Source: Novipirellula galeiformis
GTDB lineage: Bacteria; Planctomycetota; Planctomycetia; Pirellulales; Pirellulaceae
NCBI RefSeq assembly: GCF_007860095.1
Contig: NZ_SJPT01000016.1
Span: 1 to 64,000 of the forward strand
Reading direction: 5' to 3'
Length of the DNA: 64,000 nucleotides
The translations under genes and the position numbers were made by a program. The notes below the pieces were generated by a model that saw only the letters and a program-made list of their open reading frames with translations, did no database searches and was not told where the DNA came from. Below, one piece after another: positions 24,706 through 31,452 of the stretch. The stretch's first letter is position 1; every line of letters starts with the position of its first letter.

Positions 24706-26265
24706 TTGCAAAACGAAACGCTTATTGCCTTGCTAGGCCCGTCCGCGGATCCCGTCGCTGCGGGATGGCGGTTGAGAGAACTTGCCGAAAACGAGTCGTA
24801 CGACGGTGCGGATCTGATCCTTGAGCTGAGCGAGCAAGAGGACTTGGTGCGTCGCTCGGATCCCGCAATTTTGGGCGGACTGTTGCATGTGATCCATAGC
24901 TTGGTGATGCGTTCAGCCGCTGCGAGTGAAGGGGAAACCCTCGCAAAAGTCGAAACGCAACGGGTCCGACAACTCGACCAAACGCTGCCCGAGGCAACGC
25001 CCAATCGGCATTTGTTATTGCACCTCTTAGCGATGATCCAATCCGAAGATGCGCTCGCGGTCTTGCTCGATCGGCTTGAACAATCTCCGCCTGGGAAGTG
25101 GATCGAGGCGGCACAAGCGATCAGTCCCCTGATGCAAAATCCTCGCTGGAAAGTGGGATCGGTGTTTCCCCGCTTGCTGCAATGTTTACAGTACCCATCG
25201 CTAGCGGCGCCCACGCTTGATCTGGCCAACTTTCTGGCCCGCGAACACAACATCTCGCCGCATCCCGCGGCGGACAACATTTCGATGTTGAACCGTTTGC
25301 TTGGCGAAGTGAGCGCCCGGCTGGGCAACTTTGAAGAAAATCCACGCGCCTTTGGTGACGATGTAGAAACCGTGCAATCGACCTTAGGCGAGGCGGTATC
25401 ACTGGCGGTGTCGTTATGCGACGCGGTCGGCTTGATCGGGGATGAGTCTTCGATTGGAAAGTTGAATCAAACCGTCGACTTAAAACATCGTCGTGTGCAA
25501 TGTGAAGCGGCCGGTGCCTTGGCTCGCTTGGGCGATGAACTTGGCAAGAAACGAATCTTGGAATTGACGACCGATCCGGCCGCACGATTGCGCGCGATCG
25601 CGTATGCCGATGAACTGGGGTTTGGCGACTTGGTGGATCCCGAGTTGCGTTCGGAAACCTCCACTGCCGAAGCGGAAATGTCCCTGTGGTTGACGCAACC
25701 GCAACAGATGGGCGTGCCGCCGACATCGATCGAAGTGGTCGATTCACGTCGCATGTTGTGGCCTAGTTTTACCGATCGCGTCGACGTGCATTTGGTCCGT
25801 TTTGAATACAGTTTTGGTGAGCAACAGTACAGCAACATCGGGATCACCGGGCCGGTTACTTTTGCCATTTCCAATGATGTGGCCGATCTGCCGATCGACG
25901 ATATCTACGCAATCTATGCAGGTTGGCACGCGGAGCACCCCGAGATCTTTGTGATCCCGGCGGAACAGTTCAATGTCGCTCAGCAGCGTGCGATGCAGGG
26001 CTACGTGAAGCATCTCGAGATGTTGGAATACGAAGAGATCAAACCCGCTCTATTGGGCTTTTTCCTTGATGAGCAAGCGGGCGTCTTCACCGCCCTGCGC
26101 GGTGAAATCGAGTGCATCGTGGTCACCGATGGCTTGGAAACGCTCGATCACACCATCGCAGGTCGAATTCGACCGCTGGCACCCGGAGACGTATTCAATC
26201 TCTACAAGGGGCGAAAAATGCTACGCACCTTTAATCCCTCATCGAACCCCAGTATGGATGAATGA
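24706..26265 (+). CDS. HEAT-repeat-like protein, first gene of the WXG/FtsK-like block
   Basis: A 519-residue soluble protein I cannot assign to a named family. Its first 315 or so residues are helical with Leu/Ala-rich repeats, and a recognisable HEAT-type pair near residues 265-315 (QCEAAGALARLGDELGKKRI, DPAARLRAIAYADELG). The C-terminal 190 residues look mixed alpha/beta (RFEYSFGEQQYSNIGITGP, ISNDVADLPIDDIYAIYAGW). It has no signal peptide or membrane segment. The start is TTG at 24706, with no clear alternative. Its last codons overlap the next gene by 4 bases (ATGA), so translation of the WXG-like protein is probably coupled. A scaffold, chaperone or adaptor role in the system is inference from position. 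Confidence 0.68.
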   Translation: MQNETLIALLGPSADPVAAGWRLRELAENESYDGADLILELSEQEDLVRRSDPAILGGLLHVIHSLVMRSAAASEGETLAKVETQRVRQLDQTLPEATPNRHLLLHLLAMIQSEDALAVLLDRLEQSPPGKWIEAAQAISPLMQNPRWKVGSVFPRLLQCLQYPSLAAPTLDLANFLAREHNISPHPAADNISMLNRLLGEVSARLGNFEENPRAFGDDVETVQSTLGEAVSLAVSLCDAVGLIGDESSIGKLNQTVDLKHRRVQCEAAGALARLGDELGKKRILELTTDPAARLRAIAYADELGFGDLVDPELRSETSTAEAEMSLWLTQPQQMGVPPTSIEVVDSRRMLWPSFTDRVDVHLVRFEYSFGEQQYSNIGITGPVTFAISNDVADLPIDDIYAIYAGWHAEHPEIFVIPAEQFNVAQQRAMQGYVKHLEMLEYEEIKPALLGFFLDEQAGVFTALRGEIECIVVTDGLETLDHTIAGRIRPLAPGDVFNLYKGRKMLRTFNPSSNPSMDE

Positions 26266-26522
26266 TGACATTCAAACTTGGTCCCGCTCAGGATGCTGAA
26301 AACCGAATCAAGCGTGATTTCAGCGAGTTTTCCCGGCTCTGGAGCGAGGTACGTGAAGTTTGGTTGGACGATCGTTGTCGCCAATTCGAGCAGCAACATT
26401 TATCCAATTTGGGACCAAGTTTGACCCGGTTCTCCTCGGCGTTGCAAGAGTGTTGTGAGGTGATTCGGCGTGCCGAGGAGGCACTCAACGACGATCGCGC
26501 GCGTTCAGACAGGTTAGAATAA
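26262..26522 (+). CDS. WXG100-like small helical protein (WxD variant)
   Basis: An 86-residue protein with no signal peptide, predicted to be two helices with a turn. At the turn it has VWLDDRCRQF: Trp34 with Asp36 where WXG100 proteins have W-x-G, an aromatic residue (Phe42) eight residues after the Trp as in ESAT-6 (Trp to Tyr), then a second helix with Leu/Ile/Ala spacing similar to ESAT-6 apart from a one-residue shift (FSSALQECCEVIRRAEEAL). Length is near the WXG100 norm. It overlaps the HEAT-like gene by 4 bases and precedes the FtsK-type ATPase by 72 bases, the neighbourhood expected of a type VII substrate. ATG 26265 is an equally possible start. The family call is by eye and needs a profile search; a generic coiled-coil protein is the alternative. 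Confidence 0.6.
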   Translation: MMTFKLGPAQDAENRIKRDFSEFSRLWSEVREVWLDDRCRQFEQQHLSNLGPSLTRFSSALQECCEVIRRAEEALNDDRARSDRLE

Positions 26523-26594
26523 AGCGTTTGCTGTTCTGAGATTCTTACTCGTCGTTCTTCGACGCTGTCTTTCTTTTCTGAAACGCTGCTGACA

Positions 26595-29500
26595 ATGAAA
26601 GATTCATCCGTTGGTCCCGCTGGACTGCTCGCCCCTTCACGCCAACGCCGTTTGCTAGAGGCATTGGCGTCTCGCTTTCGCTCGAGCGTGAGCCAACAGC
26701 AAGCCTTAGCGGAGCGACATGCGTCCGAAAGCGAGCATGAGCAGACGAGCTTGAATTCGCAACGCGCCATCAAGACCGACGCGTGCCGACATCTACGGCA
26801 TGAAATGCTGGTTGAATGGGATGCAAATGAAGAGCGGTTGACCAGTCAATATGAAACGCTGGCGATCAAGAACCGTCAAGAATTGAATCGTCTCGGTGCC
26901 GTTTATCGCAAAAAGGCCAGTGTGTGGAAGGATGCGATCGAGCGTAAAGTCAAAGCGAGAACGACCGCAATCCATCACCAATACAACGAACGCAAAGACA
27001 GACCGGGGAAACTCCGCGACAAAGAAATCGAGCAAATCAATCAATCGCTCAACCCCATCTATCAACACGTCGAGTGGGCGCGGGCGTTGACGTTACGGCG
27101 GCTCGATCGTCTACCCGAAGTGCTGCCAGCGCAATCAGCCGAGGACAATCAACGGCTGCCAGCCCCCAAGGATGTCCGAGAATCCATTGACGGGATTGAT
27201 TTATTGACACGCCGATGCAAACAAACCGTGGTCGAGATGCAATCGGGAGCCGCATCCAAAATCGTCGATTCGTTCTACCTGCCCGCCGGGGTGGGCGTCT
27301 TTATCTTGATCTGGGCGGTCGGTGTAATGGCGCTGAAGTTCGATCCCCCTTGGTTGCCCATGGCCGCGGGGGTACCGATCGCGGGTGTGATCGGGTTCAC
27401 CATCTTTCTGATCTTAATGATGCCGCTAAAACGGATGACGCGGCGACTGCATCCGGTGGTCGAACGGATTGCCCAAGCGGCCGAAGAATCAGCCGCAACG
27501 GGTCGCAAAATTGCAGCCAAGGTCGCTCAGGATGCGTCGCTCGAATTGATCAACCAACGCGATCTCCATCTTGAAACGGCGGCCCGTTGGCGATTGGAGC
27601 AACTACAACTGCTCGAAGAAACGATCAACGCAGAGCGTGAACAAGCCAAAGAACGACTGCTTCAAGCACTCACCAATGCGAACAAGGAATACAAAACGGC
27701 ATGGAATCGACTCAGCGAAGCGATGATGTCCAAGGCCGATAAGCTTGCCAACCGAATCACCAGCGATTTGGCCGACACCGATCAATCGCTGGCCCAACAA
27801 CGTCGTTTGGCAAGCGAAAAACGGCTGCAGGAATACGCAAGATTGGCGGATCGGCTTAAACGGGGTGTGAGTGGCGGGTTAAACCGGATCGACCAAGCGG
27901 CAAACCGGGTCGAGTCGCGTTTTCCGGATTGGCAAACGGTGCTCGACACCAGCGTGTCGGCCCCCCCAGCGACCGATTATTTGCCGGTTGGACGGCTAAG
28001 AGTCGCCCCCAGTTTGCGCAACATGCTGGACCATTCGCCAGCCCTCGATGCATCGTCCTGCGAAACTCCGCAAGCGGAGAATCCAATCTCCAACGAGATT
28101 GCCAGCCTCCAGGAACTCGAGGTGCCGGAGTGGTTGCCGATCGTACTTCACCGCCGCTTGCATAGCGGTTTGGTGATTTCAGCGCCCTCGTTTTACCTGG
28201 ATGACGCGATCGATCTCGCCCACCAAGTGCTGTGGCGATTGTTGACCGGGGCGGCACCCGGGCGAGCCAAGTTGACGCTTATCGATCCGATCGGACGCGG
28301 CCAAAACTTCACAAGTTTTATGGCGTTCGCCGATCATGATCCGACGCTGGTGGGACATCGCGTCTGGACCAGTGAATCGCAAGTGAGCGAGCGGTTGGGT
28401 GAAATTGCTCAGCACATCGAAGACGTGTTGCAAGCGAGTTTGCGCGATCGGTTTCAGCGTATCGAAGACTACAATGAAGTCGCCGGTTCCATGGCGGAGC
28501 CGTACCGCGTGATCGCTGCGATCGGGTTCCCCGAAGGCTTGACCCGTGACGGCTATCGCCATTTACAGGCACTGATCGAAAGTGGGCTGCGTTGCGGCGT
28601 TTTCACGATCCTTGTCTGTGATAAGTCGAAACCATGGCCAGCAGAAACCCCGCTGCCGAAAACAAACAAGTTGTTACACCTTGATGTCAGCGACGAGGGC
28701 CAGTGGCATCTGCTCGAAGACGGGTTACAGGAATTGCCATTTGAACCGAAGACTTCCCCTCCCACTGGATTGCGCAGCGCCTTGGTGGAGCAGGTCGGAT
28801 TGGCGGCGATCGCCGCGGCGCGAGTCGAGATTCCGCTGGCCGATATCTTAAAACAGGATCACGCCGCCGCCGGCTCGACCTCGGATCGAATTGAAATTCC
28901 TATCGGCAGCCAAGGGGCAAACCGGCATCTCGCGCTCGACTTGGGCGAAGGCGTTCGCCAGCATGTTTTGATCGCGGGGAAAACGGGGTCCGGCAAAAGC
29001 ACGCTGTTGCACGCCATCATCACGTCCGGTGCCTACCACTACACGCCCGACGAATTGCAGTACTACCTACTCGACTTCAAAAAGGGAGTCGAGTTCAAAC
29101 CGTACGCCGACGCCCACTTTCCACACGCCCGAGTGATCGGGATCGAAAGCGAGCGAGAATTTGGCCTGAGCGTACTGCAACGCCTCGATCAGGAATTGCA
29201 GCAACGGGGCGAGAAATTCCGGAGCGTCGGCGTTCAAGAACTTAGCGAATACCGCGAAGCAAGCGGCCAATCGATGCCTCGTATCATGTTGGTGATCGAC
29301 GAGTTTCAAGAGCTGTTCGTGCGAGATGACCGCTTGGCTGGCGATTGCGCCATGTTACTCGATCGATTGGTGCGGCAAGGGCGTTCGTTCGGAATGCACG
29401 TGATCCTCAGTAGCCAATCGCTGGCCGGTGCGTACTCGCTGCCACGCGCCACGCTGGGTCAAATGGCGGTCCGTATCGCGATGCAGTGTAGCGATGCCGA

Positions 29501-30521
29501 TGCCGCATTGATCCTGGCCGACGATAACACCGCGGCTAGGCTGATCGCTCGGCCCGGAGAGGCGATCTACAACGATGCCGGCGGTTTGATCGAAGGCAAT
29601 CAACCCTTCCAAGTCGCTTGGCTCTCCAATACAGCCCATCGTGAAATGTTAACCGCGATTGCAAAACGCGATGAACGCGCTGTCGCATCGCTACCACCCG
29701 CCGTCGTCTTCGAAGGAAATCGCCCCTGCCGCTGGACACCGAGTCTGGCCAATCAAGTTCTCGCTGCCGCTGAGGACAAGTCGCTTTACGGCTTGCTTGG
29801 CGAAGCCGTCGAAATTGGTCCACCGGTCTCGGTTAAGTTGACGCGTGATACCGGACGCAATGTGCTGCTAATCGCGCCGGCTGAATCGCGGGGCGCGGTC
29901 ATAGCTACCTGTGTGGCCAGCTTCTGCAAATCCGATCCACGCACCCAAATCATTTATTTCGAGGGGACAAGAGTCGACGATGCCGAATCGATTGCTCCAT
30001 GGTTGGGTGAATCCTCGGTCTCGGCAACGATCATCAAACTGCGCGATGTCGAAAGCGAAATGGTCCGCGTGCATGGAATCGTCCAAGAACGGATGAAACA
30101 AGAGGGTGACTTTCCAGCGATCGTCTTGGTGATCGATCCACTCGAACGCTTTCGAGACCTGCGACAAGACGAGTCCTTCCAATTTTCGCTCGACGCCGCT
30201 CCAAGTTCGCTCAGCGGGGCGACGGCATTTCAAGAATGCTTGCGCGACGGGCCAGCGGTGAATGTGTTTTCGATTGTGGTCAGCGGCTCGGCGGAAACCC
30301 TCTCACGATGGTTGCCGCGTGCGTCACAGCACGATTTGGAGTTGCGGGTTCTCGGACGAATGAACCCATCGGATTCCTCGCTCTTGATCGATACCCCGAT
30401 GGCCGCAGAGCTGTCGGCCGCAACGATGCTAATCTATGACGATTCGGATGGCCGAATCAGTAAGTTCCGACAATGTCATCGACCAAGCGCCGGAGACGTC
30501 AAATCATGGCTCCAATCGTAG
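26595..30521 (+). CDS. Membrane-anchored triple FtsK/SpoIIIE (EccC/EssC-like) ATPase
   Basis: A 1308-residue protein. Residues 1-220 are long charged helices; two membrane segments lie at about 229-249 and 254-277; a second coiled coil covers about 280-450. Three FtsK-type ATPase modules then follow, as in type VII EccC/EssC. Module 1 (about 528-680) is degenerate, with no P-loop (ISAPSFYLDDAIDLAHQV). Module 2 (about 770-1030) is intact: Walker A GKTGSGKST at 795-803 and Walker B MLVIDEF with Asp902-Glu903, then ILSSQSLAG. Module 3 (about 1089-1300) is degenerate (LIAPAESRGAV in place of a P-loop; VLVIDPLERF lacking the Glu). In known EccC the ATPase modules also differ in activity. DNA translocation, as in FtsK, is the main alternative; the neighbouring WXG-like gene and three-module plan favour protein secretion. 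There is no FHA domain and no gamma DNA-recognition domain. Confidence 0.82.
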   Translation: MKDSSVGPAGLLAPSRQRRLLEALASRFRSSVSQQQALAERHASESEHEQTSLNSQRAIKTDACRHLRHEMLVEWDANEERLTSQYETLAIKNRQELNRLGAVYRKKASVWKDAIERKVKARTTAIHHQYNERKDRPGKLRDKEIEQINQSLNPIYQHVEWARALTLRRLDRLPEVLPAQSAEDNQRLPAPKDVRESIDGIDLLTRRCKQTVVEMQSGAASKIVDSFYLPAGVGVFILIWAVGVMALKFDPPWLPMAAGVPIAGVIGFTIFLILMMPLKRMTRRLHPVVERIAQAAEESAATGRKIAAKVAQDASLELINQRDLHLETAARWRLEQLQLLEETINAEREQAKERLLQALTNANKEYKTAWNRLSEAMMSKADKLANRITSDLADTDQSLAQQRRLASEKRLQEYARLADRLKRGVSGGLNRIDQAANRVESRFPDWQTVLDTSVSAPPATDYLPVGRLRVAPSLRNMLDHSPALDASSCETPQAENPISNEIASLQELEVPEWLPIVLHRRLHSGLVISAPSFYLDDAIDLAHQVLWRLLTGAAPGRAKLTLIDPIGRGQNFTSFMAFADHDPTLVGHRVWTSESQVSERLGEIAQHIEDVLQASLRDRFQRIEDYNEVAGSMAEPYRVIAAIGFPEGLTRDGYRHLQALIESGLRCGVFTILVCDKSKPWPAETPLPKTNKLLHLDVSDEGQWHLLEDGLQELPFEPKTSPPTGLRSALVEQVGLAAIAAARVEIPLADILKQDHAAAGSTSDRIEIPIGSQGANRHLALDLGEGVRQHVLIAGKTGSGKSTLLHAIITSGAYHYTPDELQYYLLDFKKGVEFKPYADAHFPHARVIGIESEREFGLSVLQRLDQELQQRGEKFRSVGVQELSEYREASGQSMPRIMLVIDEFQELFVRDDRLAGDCAMLLDRLVRQGRSFGMHVILSSQSLAGAYSLPRATLGQMAVRIAMQCSDADAALILADDNTAARLIARPGEAIYNDAGGLIEGNQPFQVAWLSNTAHREMLTAIAKRDERAVASLPPAVVFEGNRPCRWTPSLANQVLAAAEDKSLYGLLGEAVEIGPPVSVKLTRDTGRNVLLIAPAESRGAVIATCVASFCKSDPRTQIIYFEGTRVDDAESIAPWLGESSVSATIIKLRDVESEMVRVHGIVQERMKQEGDFPAIVLVIDPLERFRDLRQDESFQFSLDAAPSSLSGATAFQECLRDGPAVNVFSIVVSGSAETLSRWLPRASQHDLELRVLGRMNPSDSSLLIDTPMAAELSAATMLIYDDSDGRISKFRQCHRPSAGDVKSWLQS

Positions 30522-30735: not shown

Positions 30736-31452
30736 ATGTCACGCCTTCTCCCAATCGCCACGATCATCATGATGGCCATCACGTCGCCACAAGCCCGCGC
30801 CCAAATCACGCAGGTTGATGGAGCTCCGCCGCAGGCATTGCACTCAGCCCCCCTTCACGATTCGGGGTACAACGACGGGTACGACGGACACATTTACCAT
30901 GACTATTGGCATCATCCGCCACACACCCCCAGCGTGACTCAATTGGACACCTACGCCGATCAACTTGCCAAAGTGGCTCGGCATCTGCACGAGGACGCTC
31001 ATCGATTGTCACAAGACTACGAGCACTCGGAGTCGATCGAACGGTATGTGGACCAAATCGATCGGCTGCAACAACACATGCACCAAATCCTTCATGAAGC
31101 GGCGGAGGCGAATCGCACCTCCACCGGGTTGATCCAACACATCAAGAGCGACGTTCGCCAAGTCAAGTCTCTTTTGAATCAACTTTATCGCGAACTTCAA
31201 CATCAAGGGTTTGATGGGGCGCGAACCAATGACTTTCATGCGATGGCACATATGCGTCAAGTGGTGGTTTCCGAAGCGAACCCGCTCATTCGCCAGCTTG
31301 AGGTTGCCCTCTATGGATACACCCAACCACAGGACGTGCATCGTAGCTTTCGTCATCCCGTTCCTTCGCCTTGGTATCCTCACTCTCGAAACCCGCACTC
31401 TCGAAACCCGCACTCTGGGATTCCTCACTCTGAAATCCATCACCATCACTAA
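30736..31452 (+). CDS. Histidine-rich secreted coiled-coil protein (paralogue 2) with His tail
   Basis: A 238-residue exported protein, paralogue of 9295-9942. The start ATG 30736 has GGAG about 10 bases upstream and gives a signal peptide, MSRLLPIATIIMMAITSPQARA. A His/Tyr/Asp-rich segment (about 35-65: YHDYWHHPPHTP) precedes a coiled coil (about 70-190) with a regular MHxxxH pattern (QQHMHQILHEAAEAN). The C-terminus is built from four 15-base repeats encoding His-Ser-x-x-(Pro/His) and ends in four His residues, a natural His tail. It is likely to bind transition metals in the periplasm, which is inference from composition. It follows the FtsK-like gene by 214 bases and has its own upstream region, so membership in that system is uncertain. 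Confidence 0.68.
   Translation: MSRLLPIATIIMMAITSPQARAQITQVDGAPPQALHSAPLHDSGYNDGYDGHIYHDYWHHPPHTPSVTQLDTYADQLAKVARHLHEDAHRLSQDYEHSESIERYVDQIDRLQQHMHQILHEAAEANRTSTGLIQHIKSDVRQVKSLLNQLYRELQHQGFDGARTNDFHAMAHMRQVVVSEANPLIRQLEVALYGYTQPQDVHRSFRHPVPSPWYPHSRNPHSRNPHSGIPHSEIHHHH
31381..31449 (+). repeat. 15-bp in-frame tandem repeat at the end of the histidine-rich gene
   Basis: Units at 31381-31395 and 31396-31410 are identical (CACTCTCGAAACCCG). Units at 31411-31425 and 31426-31440 keep CACTCT but diverge afterwards, and CACCATCAC follows up to the stop codon. The array sits inside the coding region and extends the metal-binding-like tail without shifting the frame. Confidence 0.9.

What the first reader, a model, noticed from the sequence alone, without database searches (positions are those of the whole stretch)
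24706..30521. Candidate divergent type VII-secretion-like locus: HEAT protein, WXG100-like WxD protein and triple FtsK ATPase
Seen: a 4-bp ATGA overlap joins a 519-residue HEAT-like protein to an 86-residue helical protein whose turn reads WLD with Phe at +8, close to the Trp/Tyr spacing of ESAT-6; 72 bases later starts a 1308-residue ATPase with two membrane segments and three FtsK-type modules, only the middle one with Walker A (795-803) and Asp902-Glu903. Known: EccC/EssC of type VII systems combine a membrane anchor with three FtsK modules and work next to WXG100 proteins. Inference: a type VII-like exporter in a double-membrane, peptidoglycan-poor phylum, with long coiled coils instead of FHA or EccB/D/E partners. 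This would be a new lineage of the system.
Basis: partly seen in the sequence, partly recalled or inferred. Interest (0 to 1): 0.88.

Follow-up and report, generated by a model that had tools for sequence, protein, structure and literature searches.

The report
Type VII-like export core in Planctomycetes
[quoted passage not shown] it is kept as a set by about three in ten sampled Planctomycetes genomes, and its mobile relatives were already known in outline.

Summary
In detail: the HEAT, 86-aa and 1308-aa genes are where stated, and only the middle FtsK module has Walker motifs. The refuting outcome did not occur: the ATPase scores best against EccC/EssC, and the small protein's family matches WXG100 proteins, sub-threshold. 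The HEAT gene is not core. The real unit is four genes, WXG100, coiled-coil 'gene A', small W-x-D hairpin, ATPase, in this order in 28 of 34 Pirellulales loci. In the window's genome it is split: WXG100 and gene A lie on another contig. In 393 Planctomycetota genomes WXG100 and ATPase co-occur in 114, with one exception each way; 34 of the 114 have them unlinked. In plasmid relatives the gene A slot holds toxin-like proteins, so gene A is probably the exported substrate; the planctomycete version mostly lacks a toxin domain. Novelty is limited: a 2012 footnote and a 2024 CoCoNuT paper describe related cassettes with WXG100 proteins and an ATPase whose middle module alone is active. New here are the membrane-anchored, chromosomal, apparently vertically inherited version and its phylum-wide co-retention. 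Export is inferred, not shown.

The parts
26262..26522 (+). 86-aa WXG100-like helical hairpin ('small W-x-D protein'); start at 26262 or 26265
   Evidence: A family member lies just upstream of the ATPase in 31 of 34 Pirellulales loci and 67 of 80 named loci; A2/A5 profiles find S. aureus EsxA; AF2 hairpin pLDDT 90.9
26361..26369 (+). W34-L35-D36 turn motif
   Evidence: W and D invariant in 68 of 68 aligned homologues
26595..30521 (+). 1308-aa EccC/EssC-like ATPase: N-terminal helical (coiled-coil-like) part, two TM segments, second helical part, three FtsK-type modules
27261..27428 (+). two predicted membrane segments of the ATPase (residues about 223-278)
   Evidence: hydropathy; two non-overlapping peaks in 30 of 34 homologues
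28167..28712 (+). module 1 (about residues 525-706), no Walker A
   Evidence: AF2 model; motif scan
28890..29624 (+). module 2 (about residues 766-1010), the one with Walker A and B
   Evidence: Pfam FtsK_SpoIIIE 6.6e-28
28977..29000 (+). Walker A GKTGSGKS (residues 795-802)
29298..29303 (+). Walker B Asp902-Glu903
   Evidence: DE in 76 of 76 homologues
29784..30479 (+). module 3 (about residues 1064-1295), no Walker A
   Evidence: AF2 model; VIA aligns EssC D3 6tv1 to it, Z 18.1, rmsd 3.6, 222 residues
24706..26265 (+). 519-aa HEAT-like protein; clade-specific neighbour, not part of the conserved core
   Evidence: homologues only in L032 and L033 of the first loci and in 11 of 80 named loci, nine of them titled Rhodopirellula or Rubripirellula

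Best explanation
The small protein and the ATPase are two of four core parts of a type VII-like protein export system that Planctomycetota carry on the chromosome. Proposed mechanism: the ATPase, anchored in the inner membrane by two TM segments, hexamerises; its middle module is the only motor, and modules 1 and 3 are ATPase-dead substrate or regulatory modules. The WXG100 protein (on contig C6 in this genome) and the small W-x-D hairpin act as leaderless adaptor/co-substrate hairpins that deliver gene A, a coiled-coil-like protein with a variable C-terminus, to the ATPase for export out of the cytoplasm. In plasmid-borne relatives the gene A slot carries toxin-like domains; in Planctomycetota it is mostly free of them, so here the payload is probably the helical protein itself. 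Shown: homology of the ATPase and WXG100 parts, conserved order, co-retention when unlinked, anatomy of the ATPase, and gene A fused to extra domains in two relatives. Inferred: hexamer, dimer partners, export, direction, payload function.
For: ATPase nearest EccC/EssC by profile: EccCa 116 bits, EssC 100, FtsK 22.5; PDB 4nh0 EccC 1.4e-45, EccC5 1.2e-36, YukB 6e-31, FtsK about 2e-11; Foldseek ranks 1-8 all EccC/EssC. The partner matches Pfam WXG100 in 30 of 30 members scanned at E up to 1, the window genome's own over the cut-off; nearest PDB chain H. pylori HP0062, 5.8e-13. Small-protein family: EsxA 3e-4 and 9.4e-5; hhalign to the WXG100 profile 70.9% and 63.5%, W-x-D on W-x-D, against 1% to gene A. 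Order WXG100-geneA-small-ATPase in 28 of 34 Pirellulales loci. 114 of 393 genomes have both WXG100 and ATPase, 1 WXG100 only, 1 ATPase only; 34 of 114 unlinked, six of these single-contig assemblies. Gene A with an extra C-terminal part: G022 436-aa protein, hhalign 89%, E 2.2e-6; Rhodococcus plasmid 314-aa protein, 86.8%, E 4.2e-6. On a Helicobacter plasmid the same slot holds a WHH/colicin-type DNase followed by SMI1/KNR4.
Against: No export was or could be tested. YukD and YukC were not found in this genome although the control rang in B. subtilis; the EccB search is inconclusive. Structure alone ranks single FtsK motors first (VIA Z 31.1, rmsd 2.5, 277 residues, against Z 28.9, rmsd 6.7, 494 for EssC). 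The window's small protein has no Pfam hit itself, and only 6 of 32 relatives match WXG100, best E 8.2e-4. Of five relatives of the mobile kind, three ATPases show no TM peak and two a single weak one (the EssC yardstick also showed only one), so the family need not always secrete. The Helicobacter slot protein is not detectably a gene A homologue (hhalign 0.8%), the Caballeronia one only weakly (29.6%), and the 73-77 aa proteins beside three plasmid ATPases do not match the small-protein profile significantly. The motif is W-x-D, not W-x-G. No outer-membrane component was identified.
Confidence: 0.62

Rival explanations
1. An intracellular conflict/stress module: the ATPase with WXG hairpins moves or remodels a coiled-coil (nuclease) protein inside the cell, as part of CoCoNuT/TerY-P type defence; no secretion. 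The planctomycete form is a stripped, stand-alone derivative.
For: Close relatives sit with TerY VWA, kinase, phosphatase, CARF or helicase genes (L068; L187); the CoCoNuT paper describes the same parts, notes no TM segment and thinks a different mechanism likely, though it too suspects secretion.
Against: The planctomycete ATPases have two TM-like segments in 30 of 34. Of the loci examined (L032-L071 and L072-L151), homologues of the Caballeronia TerY, PP2C and kinase genes appear only at L068. PADLOC gives only partial motor matches, best SspH 2.8e-25 and mad8 4.7e-21, and a weak LeoBC match outside the motor.
Confidence: 0.22
2. A DNA translocase of the FtsK/SpoIIIE kind, with the small protein as an unrelated adaptor.
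For: Single-module structural similarity is highest to the FtsK motor (Z 31.1).
Against: A separate FtsK is present in the same genome (25% identity to module 2) and FtsKs form their own clade, support 100; profile scores favour EccC/EssC strongly; near-perfect co-retention with a WXG100 protein.
Confidence: 0.06
3. A mobile type VII cassette passing through planctomycetes, as the 2012 footnote suggests, with no stable host role.
For: Footnote in PMC3482391; plasmid copies in Caballeronia, Rhodococcus, Deinococcus and Helicobacter; patchy presence (115 of 393).
Against: One ATPase place in 113 of 115 carriers and one high-scoring WXG100 place in all 115, kept together when unlinked; ATPase distances track those of housekeeping FtsK in 32 genomes, Mantel rho 0.69, 0 of 2000 permutations (one marker only, itself of the same superfamily).
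Confidence: 0.1

Closest known systems
CoCoNuT-associated EssC-like cassette (eLife 2024, PMC11090510; passages read) and the 'mobile versions of T7SS' of PMC3482391 (2012, Table 1 footnote 6; passages read)
   Same: EssC/YueA-like ATPase with three modules, only the middle one active; N-terminal coiled coil (2024); WXG proteins (solo in the 2012 footnote; two in the 2024 description, one without the motif); coiled-coil protein, fused to a nuclease, beside it (2024).
   Different: Planctomycete form has two TM segments, mostly a toxin-free gene A, an invariant W-x-D in the second hairpin, no TerY-P neighbours in the loci examined, mostly single copy, apparently vertical inheritance, genes may unlink.
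T7SSa/T7SSb (EccC/EssC with EsxA/EsxB)
   Same: Membrane-anchored multi-module FtsK-family ATPase with WXG100 partners; small hairpins without a hydrophobic leader.
   Different: YukD and YukC not found, EccB inconclusive, other partners not searched; active module is the middle one of three; long helical stretches flank the TM segments; diderm host (recalled).
Helicobacter pylori HP0062/HP0066 (PMC3397514, PMC4978471; passages read)
   Same: WRD-turn WXG100-like protein clustered with an FtsK/SpoIIIE gene; called a minimal type VII set.
T7SSc-T7SSj (PMC11217815; abstract and passages read)
   Same: Same logic: core ATPase, WXG100 protein, lineage-specific extra parts.
   Different: All reported from Bacillota and Actinomycetota; the words planctomyc, diderm and Chloroflex do not occur in the text.

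Membership tests
Type VII secretion system (broad sense) | EccC/EssC-type ATPase with several FtsK modules and membrane anchor | tested here: met
   but below the NCBIfam equivalog cut-offs and outside the EccC/EssC group in the tree
Type VII secretion system (broad sense) | WXG100 partner encoded with, or strictly co-occurring with, the ATPase | tested here: met
Type VII secretion system (broad sense) | ATPase-dependent export of the WXG100 protein and partners | not testable with these tools
   needs a planctomycete knock-out and secretome
T7SSa | EccB (EccD, EccE and mycosin not searched) | tested here: inconclusive
   PF05108 absent, but no control genome rang
T7SSb | YukD/EsaB and YukC/EssB (EssA and EsaA not searched) | tested here: not met
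   PF08817 and PF10140 absent from G000, control rang in B. subtilis
WXG100 family: partner protein on C6 | Pfam PF06013 over its cut-off | tested here: met
   41.1 bits against 27.3; below the NCBIfam TIGR03930 cut-off, 33.7 against 44.85; family turn W-R-D in 71 of 73, W-Q-D in 2 of 73
WXG100 family: window small protein | Pfam PF06013 over its cut-off | tested here: not met
   no hit for the protein itself; 6 of 32 relatives weakly
WXG100 family: window small protein | small helical hairpin with a W-x-(G or similar) turn | tested here: met
   profile matches EsxA; Foldseek alone uninformative
CoCoNuT/TerY-P associated cassette | TerY VWA, PP2C and kinase genes next to it | tested here: not met
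   phmmer with the Caballeronia genes finds them only at L068 among L032-L071 and L072-L151
CoCoNuT/TerY-P associated cassette | three-module ATPase, only the middle one active, long helical N-terminus | tested here: met
   A1 profile scores four plasmid relatives and L068 at 251-583 bits, a true EccC at 109.5
FtsK/SpoIIIE DNA translocase | groups with housekeeping FtsK | tested here: not met
   FtsKs form their own branch, support 100

The most novel reading that the evidence does not exclude
Planctomycetota keep an old, membrane-anchored, chromosomal diderm type VII exporter whose substrate (gene A) lost, or never had, a toxin domain; it serves a normal envelope or surface role, and the toxin-carrying plasmid and CoCoNuT cassettes are its mobile offshoots or siblings. 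This would be a further major branch of type VII secretion beside T7SSa, T7SSb and the Gram-positive c-j types.
Probability: 0.3. Interest if true: 0.8.

Novelty: new variant of a known kind. Interest (0 to 1): 0.58.

Why it matters
Type VII secretion is known mainly from Gram-positive bacteria and mycobacteria. A stably inherited, membrane-anchored version across Planctomycetota, in 114 of 393 sampled genomes, would make the question whether such diderms use type VII export directly testable, and would give a minimal four-part set (two hairpins, one substrate, one ATPase). The change between toxin-bearing and toxin-free proteins in the gene A slot also offers a way to find substrates.

Tried and rejected
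HEAT gene as core: rejected, it is limited to one clade. Known defence system: PADLOC shows only partial matches. Gene A as a homologue of the small protein: hhalign 1%; to WXG100 24.8%, first helix only, left open. Gene A in the PDB: best E 0.008, unrelated proteins. HMMER with the gene A profile did not find the G022 and Caballeronia 436-aa proteins (E 0.44 and 0.93); only hhalign did, well for G022 and weakly for Caballeronia, and not at all for the Helicobacter protein. Foldseek on the 86-aa model: best E 6.5, uninformative; the VIA second look covered 4 chains only, with the PE25-PPE41 entry first at Z 6.5, within the range common for helical bundles. The coronavirus spike hits, one of them above EsxA, have no stretch that passes alone and are taken as coiled-coil artefacts. 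Relation to H. pylori HP0066 could not be tested, as its sequence was not in reach.

Dropped rows: alignment A6 used 76 of 81 available ATPases (window plus 80; left out L076, L089, L112, L118, L131). A1 left out ATPases under 1200 aa. The 34 Pirellulales loci are L032-L051, L053-L065 and L067; L066 (fragment) and L068 (second kind of cassette) were left out. Tail statistics kept 78 gene A proteins with a score of at least 40 bits; core ends were placed by linear mapping, so tail lengths are approximate. Some genomes occur in both the unnamed and the named sets, so counts over both (78 gene A, 73 WXG100) are not all independent. The Fisher test (p about 5e-98) treats genomes as independent, which they are not. 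An earlier count of TM peaks (32 of 34) let peaks overlap; one search corrects it to 30 of 34. One search had counted two loci (L091, L123) as WXG100 carriers through a cross-hit of the small protein; one search corrects this.
Full report
Observation. The three genes are present as described: HEAT-like 24706-26265, small protein 26262-26522 joined by ATGA, ATPase 26595-30521 after 72 bases. The ATPase has the Walker A at 795-802 and D902-E903 in the middle module, TM-like segments near 223-278, and three modules in the AF2 model of residues 471-1308, mean pLDDT 88.8. The small protein is predicted as a hairpin with its turn at W34-L-D36.

Identity of the ATPase. NCBIfam gives EccCa 1.8e-33, EssC 6.8e-29, FtsK 1.9e-5, all below the equivalog cut-offs. 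A profile of 76 homologues finds EccC 4nh0 at 1.4e-45, EccC5, YukB, and FtsK at about 2e-11 in the PDB. Foldseek with the AF2 model ranks eight EccC/EssC chains first. Against this, VIA puts the FtsK motor first for a single module (Z 31.1, rmsd 2.5, 277 residues) and EssC/EccC next with more residues but looser fit (Z 28.9, rmsd 6.7, 494; Z 27.8, rmsd 13.7, 711). In an unrooted motor tree the planctomycete ATPases, two Chloroflexota MAG ones and five mobile-type ones fall on one side of a split of support 91, with EccC/EssC (85) and housekeeping FtsK (100) on the other. The tree has no root, so it does not say whether EccC/EssC or FtsK is nearer. It is a separate lineage, not a member of EccC/EssC proper.

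The real unit. The ATPase family is found at E below 1e-70 in 36 of 60 genomes, own included. In 28 of 34 Pirellulales loci the order is WXG100 (89-90 aa), gene A (about 160-290 aa), small W-x-D protein, ATPase (recounted). Of the six others, L032, L033 and L035 have only small protein and ATPase, and L043, L049 and L057 only the ATPase; in the genomes of L043 and L049 the WXG100 gene lies on another contig. In 80 named loci from a GTDB scan (best 80 of 511 relatives, a capped list), 43 show all four, 6 all but WXG100, 18 only small protein plus ATPase, 13 only the ATPase; some contigs end too soon to tell. Fifteen of the 18 (L072-L080, L083-L086, L088, L089) are among the closest relatives of the window's ATPase.

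The missing half. The window's own genome has exactly one Pfam WXG100 hit, over the cut-off, at contig C6:263546, next to a TPR-like gene and a gene A homologue. So in this genome the unit is split over two places. Genus mates L032 and L033 also lack the two genes beside the ATPase; where theirs lie was not searched.

Co-retention. Among 393 Planctomycetota genomes (drawn evenly, at least 90% complete), WXG100 (profile A3) is in 115 and the ATPase in 115; 114 are the same genomes, G362 has only WXG100 and G286 only the ATPase. In 80 of the 114 the two lie within 10 kb, in 10 further apart on one contig, in 24 on different contigs, some of which may be broken assemblies; six single-contig assemblies have them unlinked (G077, G137, G166, G233, G366, G414). 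Two carriers have two ATPase places (G115, G407); two have a second, weak WXG100 hit (G124, G140). Retention without linkage argues for a shared function.

Two hairpins. The WXG100 members carry W-R-D in 71 of 73 and W-Q-D in 2 of 73 and are closest in the PDB to H. pylori HP0062 (5.8e-13), whose WRD turn and clustering with an FtsK/SpoIIIE gene are noted in PMC3397514 (passages read). The small protein family finds S. aureus EsxA among 177,635 PDB sequences at 3e-4 and 9.4e-5 and aligns with the WXG100 profile W-x-D on W-x-D. This is good but not conclusive evidence of common descent, since Pfam thresholds are not reached.

Gene A and its slot. In 73 of 78 gene A proteins the C-terminal tail is under 90 residues and mostly of low complexity. 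Five carry a long C-terminal part (L126, L132, L133, L147, L149): three match Imm33-like over the cut-off (L126, L133, L147), one only weakly Imm33 (L149); the fifth, in a Chloroflexota MAG, looks nuclease-like by eye, with no Pfam match. In plasmid and other mobile-type relatives the same slot varies. In genome G022 (L068) a 436-aa protein aligns with gene A over its N-terminal 205 residues (89%, E 2.2e-6) and goes on with a D-ExK-like stretch read by eye; its Caballeronia plasmid counterpart aligns weakly (29.6%). On a Rhodococcus plasmid a 314-aa protein aligns with gene A over 141 residues (86.8%, E 4.2e-6) and ends ParB-like by eye. On a Helicobacter plasmid a protein matching WHH (44.6 bits) and Colicin-DNase (36.4), followed by SMI1/KNR4 (29.1), all over cut-off, lies between the WXG100-like gene and the ATPase, but it is not detectably homologous to gene A. 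Plasmid relatives came from a tblastn search that found 247 records, 4 of them covering at least 80% of the query. Hence gene A sits where toxin-like proteins sit in relatives, and is the likely substrate; this is inference from position and partial homology.

Mobile or resident. A 2012 table footnote calls such systems in planctomycetes and others 'mobile versions of T7SS'. Here the ATPase distances follow those of housekeeping FtsK over 32 genomes (Mantel rho 0.69, 0 of 2000 permutations), which favours mostly vertical inheritance with losses. The marker is single and distantly homologous to the ATPase, so this is moderate evidence. TerY-P genes like those beside the Caballeronia cassette occur only at L068 among the loci examined.

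Partners. YukD and YukC were not found in the genome (control rang); EccB was not found but no control rang. EccD, EccE, EsaA, EssA and mycosin were not searched.

Literature. Searches for WXG100 or WXG with planctomycetes or Rhodopirellula and type VII secretion with planctomycetes listed no dedicated study in the held library; the 2012 footnote is inside one of the papers. PMC3935865 (passages read) found WXG100 proteins almost only in Actinobacteria and Firmicutes, with a few in Chloroflexi. The 2024 CoCoNuT paper (passages read) describes an EssC-like ATPase with only the middle module active, an N-terminal coiled coil, no TM segments, two WXG100 proteins, and a coiled coil fused to a D-ExK nuclease, and suspects secretion. 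Anantharaman 2012 is known to me only through that paper (not held). The core idea is therefore in print; the planctomycete version with TM anchors, the mostly toxin-free gene A, the invariant W-x-D, the split in the window's genome and the quantitative co-retention are what this work adds, as far as these searches show.

Verdict. A real, conserved, type VII-related system of which the window holds half. Export is the best-supported function but remains untested. Planctomycetes were once called peptidoglycan-poor; from my own knowledge this view has been revised, and nothing here rests on it.

Noticed in passing
L068 (genome G022 contig C3:1000-18000): A second, TerY/PP2C/kinase-associated cassette with WXG100, 436-aa coiled-coil fusion, 110-aa gene and 1059-aa ATPase lies in a genome that also has the chromosomal set (L051); transposase-like genes lie upstream.
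   Followed up: partly
L113 and L132 (Anaerolineae and Thermoflexales MAGs): Chloroflexota MAG contigs carry the ATPase; the two group together (support 100) on the planctomycete side of the tree. L132 has all four genes, and its genome a second, weaker WXG100 hit; the genome of L113 has none. Contamination not excluded.
   Followed up: partly
L126:3905-4993, L133:3765-4826, L147:1486-2517: Gene A of these loci (two titled Phycisphaerales, one Planctomycetota) ends in a Pfam Imm33-like domain, an immunity-type domain in the effector slot.
   Followed up: partly
L069:4896-9717 and L070 (G008, G041): A recurring three-gene set with an AAA-like 500-670 aa protein and a 620-640 aa ATPase weakly similar to module 2; possibly a defence locus.
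   Followed up: no
L189:7111-7539: On a Deinococcus plasmid a 142-aa gene with a C-terminal TM-like helix precedes an ATPase without one, as if the anchor part were split off.
   Followed up: no
30736-31452: 238-aa protein with an apparent signal peptide and a His-rich end; its cluster occurs only in the window and genus mates L032, L033.
   Followed up: no
L052:7656-8465, L034:6414-7307, L067: A TPR-like gene of one cluster precedes WXG100 in these three loci, a possible clade-specific accessory.
   Followed up: no
L140:6646-9399, position 580 of the translated segment: One ATPase homologue has a second P-loop-like GSGSHGKT beyond module 2, an exception to the single-motor rule or a chance match.
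   Followed up: no
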